Shown here one piece after another: positions 18,522-31,294 of a DNA stretch of 64,000 bases. Made by a program: the position numbers and the translations under genes. The notes below the pieces were generated by a model. It was not told the origin of the DNA and made no database searches. It was given only the letters and a program-made list of their open reading frames with translations. Origin of the DNA: Desulfogranum japonicum DSM 18378 (lineage in GTDB: Bacteria > Desulfobacterota > Desulfobulbia > Desulfobulbales > Desulfobulbaceae); the NCBI RefSeq assembly GCF_000429945.1, contig NZ_KE386993.1, positions 71,943-135,942 of the forward strand, given 5' to 3'. Position 1 is the stretch's first letter, and each line of letters starts with the position of its first letter.

Positions 18522-19004
18522 TTATTGTTTGAGGAAAAAATATATTTCTTTATCCTGACCGCCTGTGAAATGATCAACAAATTCGGCCCCGATGTTTCGT
18601 TTACCTACGTGCGTCACTTTGGCCTTTTTTTCAACCAGGGTATGTTTCTTGTTATCCAGGTGAAAACGGACTAGGATGGTCTCTTCTTCTCGTAACTGGG
18701 GTCCTGTAAAAACTTCAATGCCAACCCCATTCTGTGACAAGTTGTTGATTCTACATGTCGTAATGACTTTGCCATTCTGGGGGATTGCGTGCATGAGTTC
18801 CCCTATGAAATTGGTCTGTTTACGATAATTTTTACGGTGTTCAATTTCCGTGGTAAAGGTTTCACCACATGTACATTTGACTTTGAATTTCCGCTTGTTT
18901 GCAGGGAGTTTATCTGCACTGATCTGCTTGACTCGCCTGCAGTGTGGGCATTCTAAGGGGATGCAACCTGTTTGGTTGATATAAGACTTTGTTATTGCTG
19001 CCAT
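18522..19004 (-). CDS. PilZ-domain protein with N-terminal zinc ribbon
   Basis: A 160-residue soluble protein. Two cysteine pairs, CPHC at about residue 19 and CTC at about 44-46, suggest a zinc-ribbon at the N-terminus. The C-terminal PilZ domain has both c-di-GMP contacts: R57-x-x-x-R61 and N88-x-S90-x-x-G93. A c-di-GMP effector role is therefore likely; the partner is unknown. A GGAG ribosome site precedes the ATG, and a perfect 14-bp palindrome lies just upstream at 19021-19034. The gene converges on the chemoreceptor gene. Confidence 0.9.
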   Translation of the reverse strand: MAAITKSYINQTGCIPLECPHCRRVKQISADKLPANKRKFKVKCTCGETFTTEIEHRKNYRKQTNFIGELMHAIPQNGKVITTCRINNLSQNGVGIEVFTGPQLREEETILVRFHLDNKKHTLVEKKAKVTHVGKRNIGAEFVDHFTGGQDKEIYFFLKQ

Positions 19005-19536: not shown

Positions 19537-22500
19537 TTATTTTTGGGAGAGTTTTTGCAAATCCTTTAAGTAGATATCATATCGGCCAAGGTAGAAACTG
19601 AGTGCTTTTGAAAAATTTTTCCCTATTAAGCCATCCACTATGATTTCACTGATTTTTCTGTAACGTTTGAGAATAAACTGCGAGCGGTAAAAGATCAGCC
19701 ATTCTTCATTTGTTAATTCCTGGCGTATTTTTATAAGAGCCCTGCGGGATCTCGGTTGGTACATCCAAAAATACATACAGTCCAAAGAATTGAGGATGAA
19801 GATATTTTCCAGTTCCTGAGCTTCTTTCCCCATGGTTTTCAGCAGTTTTTTGGGTGATTGGAGCATGTCAAGGGCATCCTCGTCTGGAAAGAGCACATCC
19901 AGTTTTGAAAAGGCTGCAAAAAGCTGATGCAGTTTGGCCCTGTAATCATCAAGACGCATACGGGTGTTGGTTTGCCGATCTGCAAGGCCCTCAATTATTG
20001 CCGCGATACAGTCAGATGCAAATTTTGAAATTACAGCAGCCCATTTCTGTAAAATTATTTCAACCTGGAGGACACCGCCAGTCTGCAAACCCCAGCCAAT
20101 GCCAGCATTGAACAGCATGGCAAGCGGAATGCTGAGAAGGGAACGGAACAGGTTGCCGATGGCTGCACTGCGTGGAAGGCCTCGAAACATGTTGTGACTG
20201 AAAATATAGATTCCGTTCGCAAGGGCCATGACTGAGTAGAGTATTAAAGGGCTTGTGGATGTGGTGATTCCCAGCCCTTGATCAAGAAGGAGTGTTTTAA
20301 CCAGAAAATCCAGCAAAGGAACCGAGAAGCCTGTATAAAAGAGGGAATCTGCAATGCGGCTCCAGCTGATGAGAGAATTCCATGGAAGAAGGGGCGAGCG
20401 CCGAAGCCCTCCTCCACCCAAAACGGCTTGGATGATGTTGCGAATCCCGGTAATGCTGAACCATATAAAAGCGCCCAAATAGGCCAGTACCCACCAGTCT
20501 TTGGTGAGACTGAAAGTGAGAAAAGCAGGGATGAAGCCGGCAGCCACCTTGAGGACGTTATTGATGTGGGTATTGATATATCTCTTCGCTTTCAGTTTGC
20601 CTTTGTGGCCGTTGGTGTCGGTGGATGACTTTTTATCACGGAGAATTCCCAGTGTGATGATATTGCCCTGGGGTTCAGCGACCAGCTCTGTGGAGTCAAG
20701 CTTCCATTCCTGGCGTTCGTTATTCCTTTTTTGAAAGAAACCATATATTCGGTGCAGAAGTCCGTTCAGAGGTCCCGTCGAATGTCGATTTGAAAAAGTA
20801 GCGTAACGATGGTGAGTAAGGTGAGCAAATAGAGGAAGCCGTGTTCGTATTCCTTTTTCGATTTCCAGCTTGGCAGATTGCTGTTCCCTTGACGGTAATG
20901 TGTCTGTGACCACCAGACCCATGCCGAATCGATGGGTATACAGGCCCGTGGAGCCTGTACCAATGCGTGATTTTAACTCACGCTTGCGGTAGAAACCGTG
21001 GAATTCCTCAAGGTGATGAAGAATATCGACCAGTACTTCCTTTCGTTCCTCCATTTCCGACATTTCAGCCCTGAGGTCGTCCAGCGGTTTTTGTTCTTCT
21101 GCGTGACGTTGTAACTGACGGACAAGGTCAAGTCTTGCTGCCTCGAAATCCCAGATGATTGCTCTCACTGAGGCTTTAAGTGCAATCACATTATCTGTGT
21201 TTAAGGCTTTTTGCAGGTCATTTATCAGTGCATAACTTTTCAGGGGGCTGACGATGTCGACTGCTTCACCTGCAAAACCATGATTTTTGCTGGTCGCTGC
21301 AGACGTGAGTCCGTGGCCCACGTCTTTAAGGTTAAATATTTCCATATGCGTGATATGGCCACGACCAATATACAAGAGTTGTAACGTGTCCTGTACAGAG
21401 AGGTTGGACAGGTTGAGAGTTACATTGGCTCCTGCATGGATATCCTGTAACTTTGCGAGAAGTTCCTGAACGGTAAGTTGCAATAAAGAGGGTACGTCGG
21501 CACTGTCACTGGGAATCCGTGGATCTGTCAACTTCGGGTTTTGGGTGGGGAGCAGGTATTCCTGAATAATTGTTTCTGGGGAGATTTCGTTTTCAGTCTT
21601 TCCAGAGGATTGCTGGGGCTGGTCTGCTGGCAAGTCGTCTGTGCCCGCTGTGTGGAGGGTGTCATGTGCTGAACTGCTGATCTGTTGGTGGATAAAACGC
21701 GCCAGATGAAGCAATGAGGGCTGGCCACTTCCTACAAAGTTCAGGAAAGCTTCGGCTGTTATCCGGGTAAGACGCAGGTTATATTTCTTGTTGATGGTAT
21801 CCAGGTGGGTGGAGTTGAACTCTTCTAGAACATCAAAGACATATTGTTGTTGATAGCGCGAAACCGTACCACCCTGAGACATCATTTCCTGCATGGGTCT
21901 TTCATGCAGAAAGTCCAGCAGGGATTGCGTCTCTGGAAAACCGCAGAGTTCCCAGGTAAATTTCACGTACTTTTGCCTGAAACGCGCTGAAAGTTCAATG
22001 CCTATTGTGGTTTGAATGCCCAACAGATCACCGGCCTCGAGAAGTTCCTCTGCTACCTGGTTGTCAATAAAATTGTAATAGACAACAGTGAGAGAACGGA
22101 TGCCTTTTATCCACGCGTCCATGAGCAGGTGCGATGGAGATTTACGTCCTTTGGTGTAGGCATCATGCACTCGATCGTCAAAGGTGAGTTGATTCCATTC
22201 TTCAGGCATTTCAAAAAGATGGTACTTTTTCAACTCTTCTCTGATGAGGGCTGGACGGCCTGTGGATGCCATACGAAAATCGTGGGCAAGCCGTAGTTGT
22301 TCCTGTTCTTTTCCCTGGTGCCTGATCAGTTCTTTCATGATCTGGATCAGCACCCTGGCTGTATTCATCTTGAAATATGCAGATGAGGAAAACAGCACCT
22401 CGTCACGAAGGGCACGCAGATTGGACAATCGTTCTTCTGATGTTCCTGTTTCAAATGATTCCAACAGGTTTACTACTGCAAAGGCAATACGGAGTCCCCT

Positions 22501-22659
22501 GGGGGCTGACAATTCCTTAATGCCATGGGGGTGCATGTAGGCTGCCGTCAGAGTACTGATCGAGTCTGGCATTTTTCTACGCCCGAGAACCTCATTCACC
22601 ATTTCCAGGAGTTCATAATCGTTCTTATCGAAAAAAATGACTGAAGGCTTTTCTTTCAT
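19537..22659 (-). CDS. Large membrane protein of unknown function (1040 residues)
   Basis: I do not recognise the family. The N-terminal ~650 residues look soluble; early motifs such as AYMHPHGIKELSAPRGLRIA and the later GIQTTIGIELSA have the flavour of a PHP or TIM-barrel hydrolase, but clear metal-binding histidine clusters are missing. From about residue 695 to 860 there are roughly five membrane segments, then about 150 charged helical residues to the C-terminus. The ATG at 22659 follows AGGAG; a longer frame to 22719 lacks a better ribosome site. It is transcribed alone, with mgsA and repeat R1-B upstream. Confidence 0.85.
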   Translation of the reverse strand: MKEKPSVIFFDKNDYELLEMVNEVLGRRKMPDSISTLTAAYMHPHGIKELSAPRGLRIAFAVVNLLESFETGTSEERLSNLRALRDEVLFSSSAYFKMNTARVLIQIMKELIRHQGKEQEQLRLAHDFRMASTGRPALIREELKKYHLFEMPEEWNQLTFDDRVHDAYTKGRKSPSHLLMDAWIKGIRSLTVVYYNFIDNQVAEELLEAGDLLGIQTTIGIELSARFRQKYVKFTWELCGFPETQSLLDFLHERPMQEMMSQGGTVSRYQQQYVFDVLEEFNSTHLDTINKKYNLRLTRITAEAFLNFVGSGQPSLLHLARFIHQQISSSAHDTLHTAGTDDLPADQPQQSSGKTENEISPETIIQEYLLPTQNPKLTDPRIPSDSADVPSLLQLTVQELLAKLQDIHAGANVTLNLSNLSVQDTLQLLYIGRGHITHMEIFNLKDVGHGLTSAATSKNHGFAGEAVDIVSPLKSYALINDLQKALNTDNVIALKASVRAIIWDFEAARLDLVRQLQRHAEEQKPLDDLRAEMSEMEERKEVLVDILHHLEEFHGFYRKRELKSRIGTGSTGLYTHRFGMGLVVTDTLPSREQQSAKLEIEKGIRTRLPLFAHLTHHRYATFSNRHSTGPLNGLLHRIYGFFQKRNNERQEWKLDSTELVAEPQGNIITLGILRDKKSSTDTNGHKGKLKAKRYINTHINNVLKVAAGFIPAFLTFSLTKDWWVLAYLGAFIWFSITGIRNIIQAVLGGGGLRRSPLLPWNSLISWSRIADSLFYTGFSVPLLDFLVKTLLLDQGLGITTSTSPLILYSVMALANGIYIFSHNMFRGLPRSAAIGNLFRSLLSIPLAMLFNAGIGWGLQTGGVLQVEIILQKWAAVISKFASDCIAAIIEGLADRQTNTRMRLDDYRAKLHQLFAAFSKLDVLFPDEDALDMLQSPKKLLKTMGKEAQELENIFILNSLDCMYFWMYQPRSRRALIKIRQELTNEEWLIFYRSQFILKRYRKISEIIVDGLIGKNFSKALSFYLGRYDIYLKDLQKLSQK

Positions 22660-22807
22660 ACTGCGTAAACTCCTGTTTGGCTTTTTGCCATGTACAAAAA
22701 AACACTGCTTTGCGATCATCCCGCATTTCTTATGTTTTCTTTATAGGCAGGCACGAGGCAACTGGTGCCGAACACGTTGCTGACATCAGACCGCGATTGG
22801 TACTATA

Positions 22808-24534: not shown

Positions 24535-26010
24535 ATGTCAATGTTGACTCGTGAGTATAATTACTTGCGAAAATCACAGAGGGTGGATGTCCCTCTTTTG
24601 ATCCAGGTCGGAACCAAAGTCTATAAAAGTTCGGACTGGTCCATGACCGGAGTGGGCATTCTCGGCTATGAGGAGGAGATCCATAAGGGGGACATTCTTG
24701 AAGGGAAACTCATTCTGATGAGTTCCGGTGCATCCATTCATGTGGATGTTGTATTGGTCTGCAGAAATATTCGCGATGATATTGTCGGTTTTGAACTGCA
24801 GAATATCACTGATCGCCACAAACGAATCCTGCGCCATTATCTTGAACTGTCCCTGGAAGGAAAAATTGATAACATTGAAGACCTCATGTCAGATTTTTCC
24901 GCTCCTCTCATTGAATCTCCCATTCAAGAAGCCATCAGTATCACGGCAGAAGAACAGGTCTCTCTGCTGAAGAAATTTCGAAGCCGGGCATTTTTGGCAC
25001 TGACCGCTGGTTTTCTACTGATGGGGTATATTATTTTCACGGTGGTTTATAACCTTGTTTTTGTATATGAAACCGTTGGGGTAACTTCGACTAATTTGCT
25101 CCAGATTAAATCTGGTGTACGTGGCACTGTGAAAAAAACGCATGTCCATGAAGGCGATATAGTGCATGCGGGAGATATCTTGTTTGATTTGGATGAAGGG
25201 CGTTTACTTGAAGAATTACAGGTGAACTCCAAAAAACTTGCCCAGCAGAACAGGCTGCTTGACAATCTGGAAGGAGAACAGCCTTTTTCCACCGGCCAAA
25301 AGTCATTGTTGGTGCAACTACTTAATGAAGAATACCTGAATAAGAGCGAGGAGTATCAAAGGGCCCAGGAACTTTTCAAACAGAAGATCATTTCCATTAA
25401 GGATTATGAGTTTGTTGAAACAAGTTTTCGCCGGGCGCGTATCAACTATTTTAGAGAGCTTGAAACCGCCCAGAATAAGCGTGAACTTATCCAAGAAAAG
25501 AAAAATTTTCAGGAATTGCAAAAGGATATTCTCCTGGCTGAAAAAGAAAGCCTCCTTCAGAATCTGGAAGCCATGCGTGTTCGTGCTCCTGTGCCTGGGG
25601 TGGTGTACACTGTTGATCATTTTGCCGGTGAATTCGTTTTGGCAAGCGATACGGTTATTACCCTTGCAACCGATCAGAAACCCTTTGTCCTTTTTAAAAT
25701 TCCCTCCAGGCAGAGTGGCAAGGCAAAACTGGGAATGCCTGTCAAAGTGTATTCTTTTGAGCTGGATACCGACTATGAGGGGAAAATCAGCTCTATAGGC
25801 TATAGTGCCATCAACCCCAGGGCTACTCTTCTGCAGGAGGTCAGTTTGGATCAGACTGTAATTAAAGTTGATATGCCTGATATAGCAAGAAAAATACCCC
25901 TCAACAGCAGGGTGAGAATATGGGTGAAAAAAGAAAGTGCCTCTGTGGATAGGATTTCTGAATTCTTTATGAATGTATTTGGAAAAGAGCATGCTGAAGC
26001 GATTCGGTAG
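24535..26010 (+). CDS. Alg44-like PilZ and membrane-fusion (HlyD-like) protein
   Basis: A 491-residue protein with the Alg44 layout: N-terminal cytoplasmic PilZ domain (about 10-115), one transmembrane helix (about 151-177) and a periplasmic HlyD-like part with a coiled coil (about 220-345). The PilZ domain keeps both c-di-GMP motifs, R12-x-x-x-R16 and D34-x-S36-x-x-G39. The barrel-sandwich halves are visible as SGVRGTVKKTHVHEGDIVHAGD and VRAPVPGVVYTV. In Pseudomonas, Alg44 binds c-di-GMP to switch on alginate polymerisation by Alg8. The start follows CAGGAG. The 3' end overlaps the glycosyltransferase start, so the two are coupled. An Alg44-type activator role here is inference. Confidence 0.92.
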   Translation: MSMLTREYNYLRKSQRVDVPLLIQVGTKVYKSSDWSMTGVGILGYEEEIHKGDILEGKLILMSSGASIHVDVVLVCRNIRDDIVGFELQNITDRHKRILRHYLELSLEGKIDNIEDLMSDFSAPLIESPIQEAISITAEEQVSLLKKFRSRAFLALTAGFLLMGYIIFTVVYNLVFVYETVGVTSTNLLQIKSGVRGTVKKTHVHEGDIVHAGDILFDLDEGRLLEELQVNSKKLAQQNRLLDNLEGEQPFSTGQKSLLVQLLNEEYLNKSEEYQRAQELFKQKIISIKDYEFVETSFRRARINYFRELETAQNKRELIQEKKNFQELQKDILLAEKESLLQNLEAMRVRAPVPGVVYTVDHFAGEFVLASDTVITLATDQKPFVLFKIPSRQSGKAKLGMPVKVYSFELDTDYEGKISSIGYSAINPRATLLQEVSLDQTVIKVDMPDIARKIPLNSRVRIWVKKESASVDRISEFFMNVFGKEHAEAIR

Positions 26011-28669
26011 AAAAGAGGGTGCTCTGTCCGTTATTGGGCCTGCTGTTTTTTATCTTGCCATTGCCTTTGCCATCGGACTCAGCAGCTGGCCCTATTTCTA
26101 TTATGTGAAAAACGAAACCCTGATCACCATTGGCTTGTTTGCCGCCTGGCGATATTCATGGCAGGCAACACATTACTGCAGAGCATTGTTGTACGGTTTA
26201 TTTGTTTATCCGCGACTTCGAAAGCAGGCACATCATGCTGCCCGCCAAGGGTGTTTCCCAGAACATATTTTTTTTATAATTCCCTCCTACAACGAAGAAC
26301 CCTGGGTGAGTGTGGAGACCTTTTTTTCCATTCTCTCGGAACTGAATGGAATTCCATGTTCTGCGTCGCTGATTGTAGCCACCGGCTCGGACCGGGACGA
26401 TGCTGTTATCAGCGAGGCGTATCGTGCTCATCCGGCATCTGAAAAGGTCGAACTGGTTCTTCAACGACAGTCACAGGGAAAACGGATAGCCATGGGGCAC
26501 GCACTCAGGGCTGTTGCAAGGCGTTACAACGATAAAAGAATAAATGATGCCAATAGCGTTACCGTATTTATGGATGGCGACAGTTACCTTGAGCCAGGCA
26601 TACTGGCCAAGACAATACCCTTGTTCTTTTTGAAAAAGAATTTGGGGGCTGTAACCACAAACGAACTTGCCTATATCAACACTACATCTCAGTGGTATAA
26701 AGATTGGTTTAATCTTAAATTCGGCCAGCGGCATATTTTGTTTCAGTCCCATTCCTTATCTCATAAGGTATTAACTCTGACCGGGCGCTTCTCCATTTTT
26801 AGAACAGAAATCGTTGTCCGTGAAGAGTTCATCCGTTTCCTTGAAAATGATATCCTTCTGCACTCCTTGCATGGTAAATTTCGTTTTCTTATGGGGGACG
26901 ATAAAAGCAGCTGGTTCTATTTATTGCGTGATGGCTGGGAAATGTTGTACGTGCCCGACGCCATTTGTTACTCTCTGGAAAGTCGTGATGCCAGCTTTCT
27001 GGATTTGAGCACCAGCCTGCCATATCGCTGGTATGGGAATACCTTACGAAATAATGGCAGGGCTCTGGCACTGGGATGGAAAAAAACCGGAGTTTTCATC
27101 TGGTTCTGCATCCTTGATCAACGTATATCAATGTGGACATCTCTTGTTGGGATAACCGGCACCCTGATTCTCTCGATATTTAAAAACCTGGTTTATTTCC
27201 CAATATTTATAGCATGGGTGCTGATTGTGCGTACAATTCAGATGCTTGTTATCGCTTTGAACGGCCACCCTGTAAGTCTTATCACCATCCCGCTTATGCT
27301 TTTTAATCAATGGGTTGGGGCTGTAATTAAAATACGCGCGTATTTCTTTCTTTCCGATCAAAAATGGTCAAAAGGAGGTGTTATGCAAGACGCAACACAA
27401 GATAAAATCCCCATACCCCATGTGTTGGCTCGTTATATGCCGCGCTATCTTATGTTTGTTTCATATGGATTGTTTTTTTTCACGCTCTTGGTAACTGAAC
27501 AGGTCATTCGGCTTCCTGATGTGTATGCTCTGCAGGCCGCTGCAGCCGGTAAGCAGGACCATGATTTTTTGGATGCACGGGATTATGGTGTTCAACCTGA
27601 CGATGGCAGGGACGACAGTGTTGCGCTGAATACGTTGATCAGAGAAGTGGTGGATGGAACTGTTATCAGACTTCCTCAAGGAAAATTGGATCTCATGCAT
27701 CCTCTTGTAATTGATCGATCCAACATTACCCTTGAAGGGAGCGGCCAGGAAAGAACTATTCTGCAGAGCATGGTAAAGTCTCCTGATGAAGCTGTGCTGC
27801 ACATCCACGGCAGATTTGGAAAGAAACTAGGTTTTTTACAGACAGATGCCGGGGCAGGTAACTCTGTAATTGAGTTTGACGATGCGAAGAAAATGCTGCG
27901 AGCTGGCGATATATTGCTGCTGAGACAGGCAAATGACGAGGCATTTTTCGATAGTATCGGCAGTTTACGTTGGCGCGAAAAGAGTCCGATTATCAGACAG
28001 AGTATGTTTCATGTTGTAGATAAGCACAATGCCAATCTGTTTTACCTGGATAGGACCTTGGATATCGATTATAGCGCGCAAAGTACACAGCTTATACGGC
28101 CAGAGTTAGTGCAGCATGTTACAGTGCGGGATCTGACTCTTATTCAATCTGTTCCCAATGCCGATATTGAGAATGTCAGATTCAGGTATGAGAACCTCTT
28201 TCCCGAATATAGGGTGGATCTCCTGAGATGTATCTGGACTGCCTTCATTACCATCGAAAATGTGTCCCTGTTACAGGCGGGGAATCATTCCCTTGTTTTT
28301 GAAAATTCCTACGCAAATACAGCAAAGGGCGTCACCATTGTAGGTGCCTGGAACAAAGGGAAAAAAGGGAGCGGATACCTCAGGGTTGCCAGAGCGTTTA
28401 AATGTGTCCTGAAAGATTTATTTGTCAAAGACATTCGACATATTACCCTGCAGTGGAGTTCTGCACATAATACGTTTGCCAACATTTATTCCACAGTGGA
28501 CTTTAATGTCCACGGTGGCTATCCCCATCACAACATAATCAATAATATTCAGTTTGCCATTCCCCCTGAGCACAAATGGCAGGCTATTACCCTGGCTCCG
28601 GATGATGCCTCCTGGGCTCCGCCAAATGGTCCGGAGAACAGTTTCAGTCAAGTGCAAATAGATCAGTAA
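25991..28669 (+). CDS. Alg8-like family 2 glycosyltransferase fused to a pectate-lyase-like beta-helix
   Basis: This 892-residue protein (from the ATG at 25991, which follows GGAAAAGAG) joins two modules. The first ~490 residues are a membrane GT2 synthase of the Alg8 type: two N-terminal helices, IIPSYNEEPW, the metal motif FMDGDSYLEPG, MGDDKSSWFYLL for the acceptor site, LPYRWYGNTLRNNGR in place of QxxRW, and several C-terminal helices. After the last helix (about 480-500) comes DARDYGVQPDDGRDDSVALN, the hallmark start of a pectate-lyase-3 type right-handed beta-helix, running to the end. By topology this beta-helix should be periplasmic, where alginate epimerases and lyases act. I see no intact DPHD-type epimerase motif. 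Polymer identity is unknown. Confidence 0.9.
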   Translation: MLKRFGRKEGALSVIGPAVFYLAIAFAIGLSSWPYFYYVKNETLITIGLFAAWRYSWQATHYCRALLYGLFVYPRLRKQAHHAARQGCFPEHIFFIIPSYNEEPWVSVETFFSILSELNGIPCSASLIVATGSDRDDAVISEAYRAHPASEKVELVLQRQSQGKRIAMGHALRAVARRYNDKRINDANSVTVFMDGDSYLEPGILAKTIPLFFLKKNLGAVTTNELAYINTTSQWYKDWFNLKFGQRHILFQSHSLSHKVLTLTGRFSIFRTEIVVREEFIRFLENDILLHSLHGKFRFLMGDDKSSWFYLLRDGWEMLYVPDAICYSLESRDASFLDLSTSLPYRWYGNTLRNNGRALALGWKKTGVFIWFCILDQRISMWTSLVGITGTLILSIFKNLVYFPIFIAWVLIVRTIQMLVIALNGHPVSLITIPLMLFNQWVGAVIKIRAYFFLSDQKWSKGGVMQDATQDKIPIPHVLARYMPRYLMFVSYGLFFFTLLVTEQVIRLPDVYALQAAAAGKQDHDFLDARDYGVQPDDGRDDSVALNTLIREVVDGTVIRLPQGKLDLMHPLVIDRSNITLEGSGQERTILQSMVKSPDEAVLHIHGRFGKKLGFLQTDAGAGNSVIEFDDAKKMLRAGDILLLRQANDEAFFDSIGSLRWREKSPIIRQSMFHVVDKHNANLFYLDRTLDIDYSAQSTQLIRPELVQHVTVRDLTLIQSVPNADIENVRFRYENLFPEYRVDLLRCIWTAFITIENVSLLQAGNHSLVFENSYANTAKGVTIVGAWNKGKKGSGYLRVARAFKCVLKDLFVKDIRHITLQWSSAHNTFANIYSTVDFNVHGGYPHHNIINNIQFAIPPEHKWQAITLAPDDASWAPPNGPENSFSQVQIDQ

Positions 28670-29984
28670 CAGATTCTGCCTGGGTTATCGCCATGCTCTC
28701 TTGAATGATTTGATACAATTTCAGCCGTGTTTTATGTGCCTCGGTCTGGGTGTCGAGCAGGTCCAGCTTCAGAAGATTCAGTTCTCTGGCTGGGTCTGTG
28801 TCCAGATTCTGAATAACATGTTCTTGTTTTGTTTGTGTTTTTTTTAGCTGGTACAACAAGAAATGTAAATCATCCTGCTGTTCTGTAAGCCTTTCCTGAT
28901 GAAAAGCATATAGAGAGGAGAGCTTTTCAAGACGCTGGCGTATTCTGTGGTTGATTGCCTGTTTTTGATATCCGTAAACCCGTTTTTGAGTTTGAATGAG
29001 AGTTGAACGTTTCAAGTCCCAGGTTAAGGGAATTTCCAGCTCTATTCCTACAACAGATCGTTCCCGTTCGTAGAATTCATCTTTATATTCCGCATGCAGG
29101 TTCAGAGATGCATCATCAAGCCAGGCTGGAAGGAAATCAGCTCTTTTATTAAATATGTCTTGAATGGCAAGATCGTGTGAATGTATCTGGGCCAGTGAAG
29201 CCAGATCATCTGTTGGCCGAAGCCGGACAGCTTCCAGTTTGTTGCACAGTTCACGTTCGGGTTTTGAAAAGCCGACGTGGTCGCTTTGCTGGTAAAAAGC
29301 TGTTCTTCTCCGGGCCTTGGTCAGCTTTCTTTCAATGTCGATGACATCATCCCGGGTAACATATCCATGGGCAAGCTGTTGTTCGCGGGCAAGCAAAATT
29401 TCCTTAAGTAGTTGAGCTCGTTCAGAATGGTAATGGAGTTCAATGTGATTCTCCAGGGTAAATATCCGGTACATCTCGTCCGCCAGTTGCCGGTCAAGCA
29501 TGTCGCGTCTGAGTTGGTAAAATTCGAGTTGTGTTTGCAGTATTTTTTTGGCATCTTCACGGATGGTCTCATAATAGCCGTTATTAAGGAGTTTCCATCG
29601 AACACCGGCAAGATAACGATCTTCAGCGTGCATGGAATCGTAGTCATATTCTCCTGCAGCATATAGCCCATAGGAAGATCTATGGCTTTGGAGCTGGTCC
29701 AGATATTCTGCTTCTACCTCTTTTATACCCTCAAGTATTGCCTGAATGGAAGACCTGCTCTGTTCCGGGGAGTCGCCTTCAAGGAAATCTGGCCCAAATT
29801 GTGACAGGTTAATGGTAAGCTCTGGCAGGCCATGCATAGTATATGCAGAGGCAGCTTTGTCCTCAGAAAGTTTGGAATGAATTTCTCCTGCCAGGCTGTT
29901 TGCCCCAGCATTAAACAGGGCCAATCCCATTAGGGAAATGGATATCAGAATACGATGGCGAGTTGTCCATTGTGCTTTTGACAT
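28644..29984 (-). CDS. TolC-family outer membrane protein
   Basis: A 446-residue exported protein: basic N-terminus, hydrophobic signal at about 10-30 ending in SLAG, then long amphipathic helices rich in Gln, Glu, Arg and Leu. Two repeat halves are visible, each ending in a beta segment: YGLYAAGEYDYDS and DRYLAGVRWKLL in the first, DDASLNLHAEYKDEF and VVGIELEIPL in the second. This is the TolC/OEP pattern. Alginate systems normally use AlgE/AlgK, so a TolC-type channel next to a HlyD-like Alg44 homologue is unusual. Its 3' end overlaps the glycosyltransferase gene tail to tail by 26 bases. It follows the MshEN gene by 4 bases and is probably its operon partner. Confidence 0.85.
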   Translation of the reverse strand: MSKAQWTTRHRILISISLMGLALFNAGANSLAGEIHSKLSEDKAASAYTMHGLPELTINLSQFGPDFLEGDSPEQSRSSIQAILEGIKEVEAEYLDQLQSHRSSYGLYAAGEYDYDSMHAEDRYLAGVRWKLLNNGYYETIREDAKKILQTQLEFYQLRRDMLDRQLADEMYRIFTLENHIELHYHSERAQLLKEILLAREQQLAHGYVTRDDVIDIERKLTKARRRTAFYQQSDHVGFSKPERELCNKLEAVRLRPTDDLASLAQIHSHDLAIQDIFNKRADFLPAWLDDASLNLHAEYKDEFYERERSVVGIELEIPLTWDLKRSTLIQTQKRVYGYQKQAINHRIRQRLEKLSSLYAFHQERLTEQQDDLHFLLYQLKKTQTKQEHVIQNLDTDPARELNLLKLDLLDTQTEAHKTRLKLYQIIQESMAITQAESVTDLFALD

Positions 29985-29988
29985 AGGC

Positions 29989-30789
29989 TTACCTGTTGTT
30001 AATTACCCAGTGCAGCCATGCTGTCTGTTCCTGGGAAAGATTATTTTTTTGGGTGCTGATAAAGCCGGTTAACCCTTGGATAGAAGAAAAAGTGACGTTG
30101 TATGCTCCCTCTGCATGAGCACCGTGACCGGTGAGTGTTGTCATCCCAGACTTCCCGACTTCTACGTTCAAATGATGATGGCTGTAGATGGTTGACTGGC
30201 CGGTAATGATGGTTTGCCCGTATTTTGCAGCATGATACAGGGAATAATTAGCCCACAGCAGGGCAGCAATGATACAAATAATGACAATTGAGGTAGCTCT
30301 GCCAGAGGCGTGGTACGTTCTGGGGGTAAAGAAGCCCCTCCAGGAAAATGTACTGTGTTGCCGTATGGCGGATATGATGTCGTCCTGTGTGGCCAGACAG
30401 GGCTGTACAGCTTTGCCTGTTATTCTTTCTACGTATTCAATGGCTTCACTGTCTGACGGGTCAGACATGGCGAGGCGAAGCACACCGTTTTGGGGTGAGT
30501 GCAAAGGGAATATGCAATACTTCAGATAGTGATGTCTGGGTAAAAGTGCACAGTTATCTCTGGATATTTCGTTGCTGATATCAATGATAGGTAAGTTGAA
30601 CTGTCTGGAAAGCGCCTTCAGGAGTTGATCGTTTGTTACCAGTCCCATACGCAGGAATATTTTTCCTATTCGCCGTCCCCCACCCATTTGCATGGATAAT
30701 GCCTGTTCGCATTGTTCCCTTGTGATTGCCTTATCTTCAACGAGGAGCTGTCCTAAATGTTTTCTTGAGGTGGTCATGGTTTTGTCCAT
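29989..30789 (-). CDS. MshEN-domain membrane protein
   Basis: A 266-residue protein. The first ~140 residues form an MshEN domain (the GspE N-terminal c-di-GMP/ATP-binding fold) with its two tandem motifs: HLGQLLVEDKAITREQ and RIGKIFLRMGLVTNDQL, each followed by an AL...Q helix. A transmembrane helix lies at about 173-195, followed by a ~70-residue periplasmic tail. There is no ATPase domain, so this is a stand-alone sensor rather than a secretion ATPase. The ATG at 30789 follows GGGA; a longer frame to 30909 overlaps ychJ. It is upstream of the TolC gene, 4 bases apart. c-di-GMP binding is likely but the first-motif arginine is replaced by His. Confidence 0.82.
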   Translation of the reverse strand: MDKTMTTSRKHLGQLLVEDKAITREQCEQALSMQMGGGRRIGKIFLRMGLVTNDQLLKALSRQFNLPIIDISNEISRDNCALLPRHHYLKYCIFPLHSPQNGVLRLAMSDPSDSEAIEYVERITGKAVQPCLATQDDIISAIRQHSTFSWRGFFTPRTYHASGRATSIVIICIIAALLWANYSLYHAAKYGQTIITGQSTIYSHHHLNVEVGKSGMTTLTGHGAHAEGAYNVTFSSIQGLTGFISTQKNNLSQEQTAWLHWVINNR

Positions 30790-30811
30790 TGAAATATTCC
30801 CAGGGTGCCTG

Positions 30812-31294
30812 TCAGCGTGCGCAACATTTTTTATATTTTTTTCCGCTTCCGCAGGGACAGGGCTTGTTTCTTCCTGGCTTTTTACTCTCAGCCTGGGACG
30901 TGAGATCACCTGAATGATACACCCATTGGCTGTCGATTTTTACAAAACGACTCTTTTCGTGCAGATCAATTGATTGGTTATGTATTGTCCGGGCCAAGGC
31001 CAGGAATTCCACAGTACCATGTTCATCTTCGGCGTTTCCATTGTTTGTCGCAAGAATTTGCAGATCATACCAGTGGGGAATGGTTTCTTTGTCTATGCTT
31101 GTTGGCCGTGTTTCAGGGTGCCAGGTTTTCAGCAGATAGTCTGTGTCAGCACGTGTATATGCTGTAAAGCGTGATCGCATGAGGGCTTCAGCGGTGGGAG
31201 CATTTTCCCTGCCTTCAAGGTATGGTTCGCAGCACTGTGCATAGGAACTGGCAGAACCGCAGGGACAGGAAAGAAGGGGAGTCGTTTTACTCAT
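30812..31294 (-). CDS. ychJ: YchJ-family SEC-C motif protein
   Basis: A 160-residue protein with the YchJ/UPF0225 layout: [13 protein letters not shown] at the N-terminus, the central signature [18 protein letters not shown], and a second zinc-binding SEC-C motif [13 protein letters not shown] at the very end. SEC-C motifs bind zinc and are also found at the tail of SecA. The biochemical role of YchJ is not established. It lies 22 bases upstream of the MshEN gene on the same strand and may share its transcript. Confidence 0.92.

What the first reader, a model, noticed from the sequence alone, without database searches (positions are those of the whole stretch)
24535..30789. c-di-GMP-controlled polysaccharide export locus with Alg8/Alg44-like synthase but a TolC-type exit
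Seen: a PilZ-HlyD protein with both c-di-GMP motifs (24535-26010), an Alg8-like GT2 synthase (25991-28669), a TolC-family protein (28644-29984) and a membrane MshEN protein (29989-30789), adjacent and interlocked at their ends. Known: alginate systems pair Alg8/Alg44 with AlgK/AlgE, epimerase and acetylases; HlyD-type proteins pair with TolC in type I secretion and efflux. Inferred: this locus may be a hybrid export route, with an Alg44-like adaptor docking on a TolC channel, under two c-di-GMP sensors. None of AlgE, AlgK, AlgX, AlgF/I/J is present. I do not know of this exact set being described.
Basis: partly seen in the sequence, partly recalled or inferred. Interest (0 to 1): 0.82.

Follow-up and report, generated by a model that had tools for sequence, protein, structure and literature searches.

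The report
Polysaccharide synthase with TolC-type exit
A small, conserved gene set, seen in three bacterial phyla, seems to make an acidic slime polymer with an alginate-type enzyme but to send it out of the cell through a TolC-type tube instead of the alginate porin; the idea is well supported by comparison but untested at the bench.

Summary
The genes are real but the picture needs correcting. A PilZ-membrane-fusion (Alg44-like) gene and an Alg8-like synthase overlap on the + strand; the TolC-like and MshEN genes lie convergent on the minus strand. The set recurs in Desulfobulbaceae, Gammaproteobacteria and an anammox planctomycete: the TolC-like gene is beside 13 of 15 fused synthases, and the other two contigs end inside the synthase. 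In one draw of 369 gammaproteobacterial genomes, fused synthase and TolC-like family occur in the same 4. The TolC-like model has the TolC fold. All 15 readable adaptors of fused loci have L-x6-[S/T] (full RLS in the window) at the hairpin tip; five sister loci without the TolC-like gene have lost the tip. MshEN is in none of 21 related loci and its first c-di-GMP motif is degraded. The 12 fused-locus genomes examined show UDP-glucose-dehydrogenase-type enzymes and no AlgD-like one, so a glucuronate polymer is likelier than alginate. Best reading: a dedicated tripartite, synthase-driven polysaccharide exporter, a new variant of synthase-dependent secretion; function untested.

The parts
24535..26010 (+). 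PilZ - TM - membrane-fusion (HlyD/Alg44-like) adaptor, 491 aa
   Evidence: Pfam PilZ, HlyD_3, HlyD_D23; PDB profile hits EmrA (E 4.5e-14) and the Alg44 PilZ domain (E 1.5e-4); one strong TM segment, residues 153-171
25360..25395 (+). Hairpin-tip motif RAQELFKQKIIS (RxxxLxxxxxxS), adaptor residues 276-287
   Evidence: motif definition from PMC3391258 passages
25991..28669 (+). Alg8-like GT2 synthase with fused C-terminal beta-helix (ORF opens at 25973; residue numbers in this report count from 25973); overlaps the adaptor gene by 20 bp
   Evidence: Pfam; alignment A2 of 13 rows; tree of 47 rows; DGD at 201, GDDK at 308, RW at 352
27518..28666 (+). Right-handed beta-helix domain, residues 516-898, probably periplasmic
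   Evidence: AlphaFold model pLDDT 92.3, pTM 0.90; closest folds K1-capsule lyase Z 30.6, alginate epimerases/lyases Z 26.3-27.4; topology estimate
28644..29984 (-). TolC-like outer-membrane channel gene, convergent with the synthase, 26 bp overlap
   Evidence: model pLDDT 75.4, pTM 0.71; TolC Z 19.4, rmsd 5.2, 356 aligned; 13 homologues beside fused synthases
29989..30909 (-). MshEN-domain gene directly upstream of the TolC-like gene (4 bp gap); specific to this genome as far as seen, motif I degraded
   Evidence: PF05157 E 4.4e-17; NF053729 55.3 bits, cut-off 38; no match in 21 related loci; motif compared with PMC5013675 passages

Best explanation
A dedicated tripartite exporter for a polysaccharide made by its own inner-membrane synthase. 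c-di-GMP binds the PilZ domain of the Alg44-like adaptor and switches on the Alg8-like GT2 synthase, which polymerises a uronic-acid chain (most likely from UDP-glucuronate) and extrudes it through the inner membrane. The beta-helix fused to the synthase trims or epimerises the emerging chain in the periplasm. The adaptor's hairpin docks by its RLS-type tip onto the TolC-like channel, which takes the place of AlgK/AlgE. Shown here: gene content, conservation, predicted folds, motifs, co-occurrence. Inferred: c-di-GMP binding, donor sugar, enzyme activity, docking, export.
For: TolC-like gene beside 13 of 15 fused synthases, the other two contigs ending inside the synthase. In one draw of 369 gammaproteobacterial genomes both families are in the same 4. 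TolC fold. L-x6-[S/T] in register at the hairpin tip in 15 of 15 readable adaptors of fused loci, absent in 5 of 5 sisters without TolC-like gene and beta-helix. Adaptor of the AlgE+Sel1 locus L076 has no hairpin. PilZ motifs invariant in 12 rows. Fused rows form one clade of 17 (98/93). No Alginate_exp in the genome.
Against: TolC-like gene is convergent, not in the same operon, in 13 of 14 loci. RLS/RLT-type tips also occur in 6 of 13 long-hairpin Alg44-like proteins from loci without this TolC-like family, so the tip alone does not point to this channel. The Arg of RLS is present in only 2 of the 15 (Asn 11, Gln 1, Asp 1). Most loci are MAGs; nothing has been tested at the bench.
Confidence: 0.72

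Rival explanations
1. A degenerate alginate system: Alg8/Alg44 make polymannuronate, AlgK/AlgE were lost or replaced, and the neighbouring TolC-like gene is only a passenger with another job.
For: The synthase groups with Alg8-type synthases (34% identity to L030, whose locus holds AlgE and Sel1 genes); the Alg44 PilZ structure is a profile hit; atypical alginate operons without algKE are in print (PMC7112194, passages).
Against: TolC-like gene kept beside the fused synthase in 13 of 13 readable relatives; no AlgD-like dehydrogenase in the tree from 12 fused-locus genomes; no DPHD motif in the beta-helix.
Confidence: 0.13
2. The adaptor and TolC-like channel form a c-di-GMP-gated efflux or protein-secretion route, and the synthase only shares the locus.
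For: The best PDB sequence hits of the adaptor are EmrA and other efflux adaptors; TolC-like fold.
Against: In the readable loci the adaptor lies directly before the synthase (20 bp overlap in the window, L010 and L011); sister loci keep the adaptor-synthase pair without the TolC-like gene; no pump or ABC gene was recognised by name in the window locus (one search covered 8 genes only).
Confidence: 0.08
3. Same exporter, but the product is not a uronate: a neutral glucan or an amino-sugar polymer, and the beta-helix is a hydrolase or a binding domain.
For: The only NCBIfam glycosyltransferase hit is a weak one to NodC (E 3.4e-7); a UDP-glucose dehydrogenase gene is adjacent in only 4 of 15 fused loci, and such enzymes are common in general; the fold list also holds glycoside hydrolases, tailspikes and an adhesin.
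Against: Placement among Alg8-type synthases; a standalone homologue of the beta-helix (E 2.9e-90) lies in an Alg8/Alg44 locus with an alginate-lyase-family gene (L110); the top fold match is a lyase of a capsule that contains glucuronate (substrate recalled).
Confidence: 0.25

Closest known systems
Alginate machinery of Pseudomonas/Azotobacter (Alg8, Alg44, AlgG, AlgK, AlgX, AlgE)
   Same: Alg8-type GT2 synthase, PilZ-TM-membrane-fusion copolymerase, a periplasmic beta-helix enzyme on the polymer's way (PMC8461298 and PMC4444821, passages)
   Different: beta-helix fused to the synthase and without DPHD; adaptor with a long hairpin and TolC-type tip; TolC-like exit; no AlgE in the genome; no AlgD-like dehydrogenase in the surveyed genomes
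Rhizobial mixed-linkage glucan operon bgsBA
   Same: c-di-GMP-activated synthase next to a HlyD-domain protein thought to form a channel (PMC9495663, passages)
   Different: there c-di-GMP binds the synthase's C-terminus; the passages name no outer-membrane partner (0 occurrences of TolC); no beta-helix
Tripartite efflux pumps and type I secretion (AcrAB-TolC, MacAB-TolC, HlyBD-TolC)
   Same: membrane-fusion adaptor with hairpin and RLS-type tip, TolC-fold channel (PMC3391258, passages)
   Different: inner-membrane partner is a polysaccharide synthase, not an RND or ABC pump; the adaptor carries PilZ
Atypical alginate operons of deep-sea bacteria lacking algKE
   Same: Alg-type genes without the outer-membrane transport genes (PMC7112194, passages)
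   Different: the held main text has 0 occurrences of TolC and the passages seen tell of no such fusion; the figure was not seen, so overlap with this set is possible

Membership tests
Alginate biosynthesis/export system | Alg8-type GT2 synthase | tested here: met
   placement in a tree with Alg8-type rows from AlgE-bearing loci; DGD and GDDK motifs invariant
Alginate biosynthesis/export system | PilZ-TM-membrane-fusion copolymerase (Alg44) | tested here: met
   but with a 133-residue hairpin segment against 13 in the AlgE-locus protein of L076
Alginate biosynthesis/export system | AlgE porin (Alginate_exp) | tested here: not met
   0 matches in the window's genome; the same family was found in L030, L076 and L077
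Alginate biosynthesis/export system | AlgK lipoprotein scaffold | not tested
   Sel1 repeats are too general a model; not searched genome-wide
Alginate biosynthesis/export system | GDP-mannose dehydrogenase (AlgD) | tested here: not met
   the genome's two full-length matches are UDP-glucose type and TviB type
Alginate biosynthesis/export system | mannuronan epimerase with DPHD motif | tested here: not met
   beta-helix fold present but no DPHD/DPHE (motif from PMC4444821 passages)
TolC-family outer-membrane channel | fold: two pairs of barrel strands and long helices | tested here: met
TolC-family outer-membrane channel | OEP sequence signature (PF02321) | tested here: not met
   no Pfam hit at E 0.001; sequence is divergent, so membership rests on the predicted fold
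TolC-docking adaptors (AcrA/MacA/HlyD type) | RxxxLxxxxxx[S/T] at the hairpin tip | tested here: met
   complete in the window; L and S/T in all 15 readable adaptors of fused loci, Arg in 2
PilZ c-di-GMP receptors | RxxxR and [D/N]xSxxG motifs | tested here: met
   RKSQR, DWSMTG; key residues invariant in 12 rows
MshEN c-di-GMP receptors | two motifs RLGxx..xxG..xxxxLxxxLxxQ | tested here: inconclusive
   family model over cut-off, motif II nearly intact, motif I lacks the first Arg and the Gly (sequence against PMC5013675)
Polyuronate lyase/epimerase beta-helix enzymes | fold and catalytic residues of a named family | tested here: inconclusive
   fold met; catalytic residues not mapped; invariant candidates K795, R807, R822, H823, D843, H847, H852

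The most novel reading that the evidence does not exclude
A further way of getting a synthase-made polysaccharide across the Gram-negative envelope: a processive GT2 synthase takes the place of the pump in a type I-like tripartite duct (synthase, PilZ adaptor, dedicated TolC-like channel), with the processing enzyme fused to the synthase, making a glucuronate polymer on c-di-GMP command. More widely, Alg44-type adaptors may fall into two classes, hairpin-less ones for AlgE and hairpin ones with a TolC tip.
Probability: 0.45. Interest if true: 0.85.

Novelty: new variant of a known kind. Interest (0 to 1): 0.72.

Why it matters
The well-studied synthase-dependent exporters leave through beta-barrels such as AlgE (with AlgK) or BcsC. 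Here the exit looks like that of drug pumps and type I secretion, so one adaptor type would link the two. It makes a testable prediction about which Alg44-type adaptors use a TolC-type channel, and offers candidate genes for a c-di-GMP-controlled glucuronate polymer in sediment and deep-sea bacteria.

Tried and rejected
Treating the four genes as one operon was rejected on strand. MshEN as a conserved second sensor was rejected on conservation. AlgG/AlgE identity of the beta-helix by motif was rejected. PDB sequence search found nothing for the synthase alone at E 0.1; its profile hit only the N-terminal cap of some beta-helix enzymes, and the TolC-like profile gave two chance hits. The fold list holds many kinds of beta-helix protein, so the activity cannot be read from it, and families not listed are not excluded.

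Hairpin length or tip motif alone as a sign of this TolC-like gene was rejected: of 21 more distant Alg44-like proteins 13 have 166-169 residue hairpin segments, and 6 of these 13 (L073, L074, L113, L116, L119, L124) have a full RxxxLxxxxxx[S/T] in register, with no gene of this TolC-like family in the stretches read. They may use another channel: L112 has an RND pump and a PF02321 channel gene just upstream of the synthase on the same strand, although its own tip lacks the motif. Tip-like strings that the pattern reported in L026 and L029 lie outside the aligned tip. Of the 5 hairpin-less adaptors, one lies beside AlgE and Sel1 genes (L076), one beside a Sel1 gene (L115); for the other three (L117, L126, L127) no exit gene was identified and most neighbours were not scanned.

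The hydropathy scan did not flag a second N-terminal TM helix, so the helix count is unsure; the periplasmic side of the beta-helix rests on the basic loop before the last helix and on published Alg8 topology (PMC8461298, passage). Promoter-like sites were no more than in shuffles (12 against 13.5), terminator-like ones somewhat more (13 against 7.3); neither was used.

Literature: 8 searches of open-licence PMC papers; I saw listings, and passages of PMC4594306, PMC9495663, PMC8461298, PMC7112194, PMC5013675, PMC3391258 and PMC4444821. No listed title or passage described an Alg44/TolC polysaccharide exporter; figures and supplements were not seen, and most listed papers were not opened. One search found no paper for Alg8 K297. 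In cyanobacteria no PilZ+HlyD_3 proteins were found by others (PMC4594306, passage).

Rows dropped: one search left out L061 (no frame extracted), a match of G303 without a locus, and the weak partial matches; the genome of L030 was not held. The 12-row adaptor alignment left out L015 and L017 (cut at the contig start), L019 (no adaptor on the contig) and L023 (near copy of L018); L015, L017 and L023 were looked at afterwards. L078 is the same sequence as L015 and is counted in the tree only. For one search (109 genomes of one order, 5 with the fused synthase) no TolC-like search was run.

Full report
What is there. The window lies in a 5.8 Mb genome; at this locus its nearest relatives are two Desulfobulbaceae MAGs. 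On the + strand a PilZ-HlyD gene (24535-26010) overlaps by 20 bp an Alg8-like GT2 synthase (25991-28669). On the minus strand, convergent and overlapping the synthase's end by 26 bp, lies a 446-residue gene (28644-29984), and 4 bp upstream of it a MshEN-domain gene (29989-30909).

The missed domain. Residues of about 516-898 of the synthase (numbered from 25973) give a confident right-handed beta-helix (pLDDT 92.3, pTM 0.90). The closest solved structures are a Klebsiella K1-capsule lyase (Z 30.6, rmsd 2.8, 312 aligned), then phage proteins and alginate epimerases/lyases (Z 26.3-27.4, rmsd 1.8-1.9, 238-239 aligned). A basic loop (453-493, 7 K+R against 3 D+E) precedes the last hydrophobic segment (494-512), so the domain is most likely periplasmic. 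It lacks the DPHD motif of AlgG and AlgE. Its invariant residues include K795, R807, R822, H823, D843, H847 and H852 (13 rows).

The exit gene. It has no Pfam hit. Its model (pLDDT 75.4; residues 1-51 poor) has two strand pairs and long helices in TolC order. The first 44 Foldseek rows and the first 29 VIA rows (best Z 19.4, rmsd 5.2, 356 aligned) are TolC/OprM-type channels.

Conservation. One scan of genome contigs gave 21 relatives: 15 with the fused beta-helix (Desulfobulbaceae, Gammaproteobacteria, one Candidatus Anammoxibacter), 5 alphaproteobacterial ones without it, one distant Alg8-type. The TolC-like gene is beside 13 of the 15 fused synthases; the other two contigs end inside the synthase. 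With the window that makes 14 loci, 13 convergent and one (L022) co-directional. The convergent coding ends overlap by 15, 26 or 47 bp, except L011 with a 1 bp gap. None of the 21 loci has a match to the MshEN protein at E 0.001. None of the 5 alphaproteobacterial loci has a TolC-like or beta-helix profile match.

Co-occurrence both ways. In a draw of 369 genomes (class of G300) the synthase profile matched 10 genomes at E 1e-40, 4 of them with the fused form; the TolC-like profile, in a search of 369 genomes drawn the same way, matched the same 4 at E 1e-5. These 4 are genomes already known or identical to them, so what is new is the absence elsewhere in the draw. In 297 genomes of the window's phylum only its own matched at E 1e-60. 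In one gammaproteobacterial order 5 of 109 matched, all fused. In 240 alphaproteobacterial genomes 18 had an Alg8-type match; one stretch was read for each of the 18 and none held the TolC-like family at E 0.001. One of them (L110) holds a standalone homologue of the beta-helix (E 2.9e-90) in an Alg8/Alg44 locus with an alginate-lyase-family gene.

The docking tip. The published TolC-docking motif is RxxxLxxxxxxS, with T in HlyD (PMC3391258, passages). The window's adaptor has RAQELFKQKIIS at residues 276-287. In 15 of 15 adaptors of fused loci in which the place can be read (window, L010-L018, L020-L024), L and S/T stand in register; the first residue is Arg in 2, Asn in 11, Gln in 1, Asp in 1. 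In the 5 alphaproteobacterial sisters the place holds other sequence without the motif. Among 21 more distant Alg44-like proteins 5 have only 12-13 residues between the lipoyl halves, 13 have 166-169, and 3 lie between. Six of the 13 have a full RLS/RLT in register though no gene of this TolC-like family was found by them. So the tip points to some TolC-type partner, not to this one alone.

Tree. The GT part of 47 synthases puts the 17 fused rows (two of them identical) in one clade (98/93), sister to the 5 alphaproteobacterial ones (100/100 together), with the other 25 outside. This fits one origin of the fusion.

Donor. In a dehydrogenase tree, no protein of the 12 fused-locus genomes falls in the clade of the dehydrogenases that sit beside other Alg8 genes; each of the 12 has one on the UDP-glucose side, that of G304 with a long branch. 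The window's genome has two full-length matches: one best hit by the UDP-glucose model TuaD (560.6 bits, below its cut-off of 700) and one TviB-type (611.6 bits, over its cut-off of 592). A UDP-glucose-type gene is adjacent in 4 of 15 fused loci, in two pairs of close relatives, upstream in one pair and downstream in the other (three of the four typed). MAG incompleteness limits this, and the glucuronate reading is inference.

Sensors. PilZ key residues are invariant in 12 rows. In MshEN, motif I reads HLGQLLVEDKAI and motif II RIGKIFLRMGLV; the published motif starts RLG and has a Gly (PMC5013675, passages). Binding is doubtful, though the family model passes its cut-off.

Known work. Alg44 is described as PilZ-TM-membrane-fusion working with Alg8 and with AlgK, AlgE, AlgG and AlgX (PMC8461298, passages). 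Rhizobial BgsB is a HlyD-domain partner of a c-di-GMP-activated synthase (PMC9495663, passages). Atypical alginate operons without algKE were noted in deep-sea bacteria (PMC7112194, passages) and may include relatives of this set. Eight searches listed no Alg44/TolC polysaccharide exporter.

Verdict. The finding is real and more than a chance neighbourhood, with strand, beta-helix and MshEN corrected. It is a new variant of synthase-dependent secretion whose export step is well supported by comparison and untested by experiment.

Noticed in passing
L110:5843-14124 (unnamed alphaproteobacterial genome G792): A standalone homologue of the fused beta-helix in a locus with unfused Alg8-like and Alg44-like genes and an alginate-lyase-family gene: a possible unfused forerunner.
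   Followed up: partly
L112:7597-16747 and L125:7358-14865: Alg8-like and Alg44-like genes directly downstream, same strand, of an RND pump and its adaptor; in L112 with a PF02321 outer-membrane channel between.
   Followed up: partly
G000:C16:39161-39703 (L083): ALGX-family match (95.9 bits) on another contig, next to a protein that reads like an MBOAT acyltransferase (not scanned): an acetylation module elsewhere in the genome.
   Followed up: no
19537-22719 minus: A 1060-residue protein without any Pfam hit at E 0.001.
   Followed up: no
18522-19004 minus: A further small PilZ-domain protein, 5.5 kb upstream of the adaptor gene.
   Followed up: no
L072:6956-13853: The nearest outgroup synthase (G626) has a polysaccharide lyase 14 gene and an arylsulfotransferase gene close by.
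   Followed up: no
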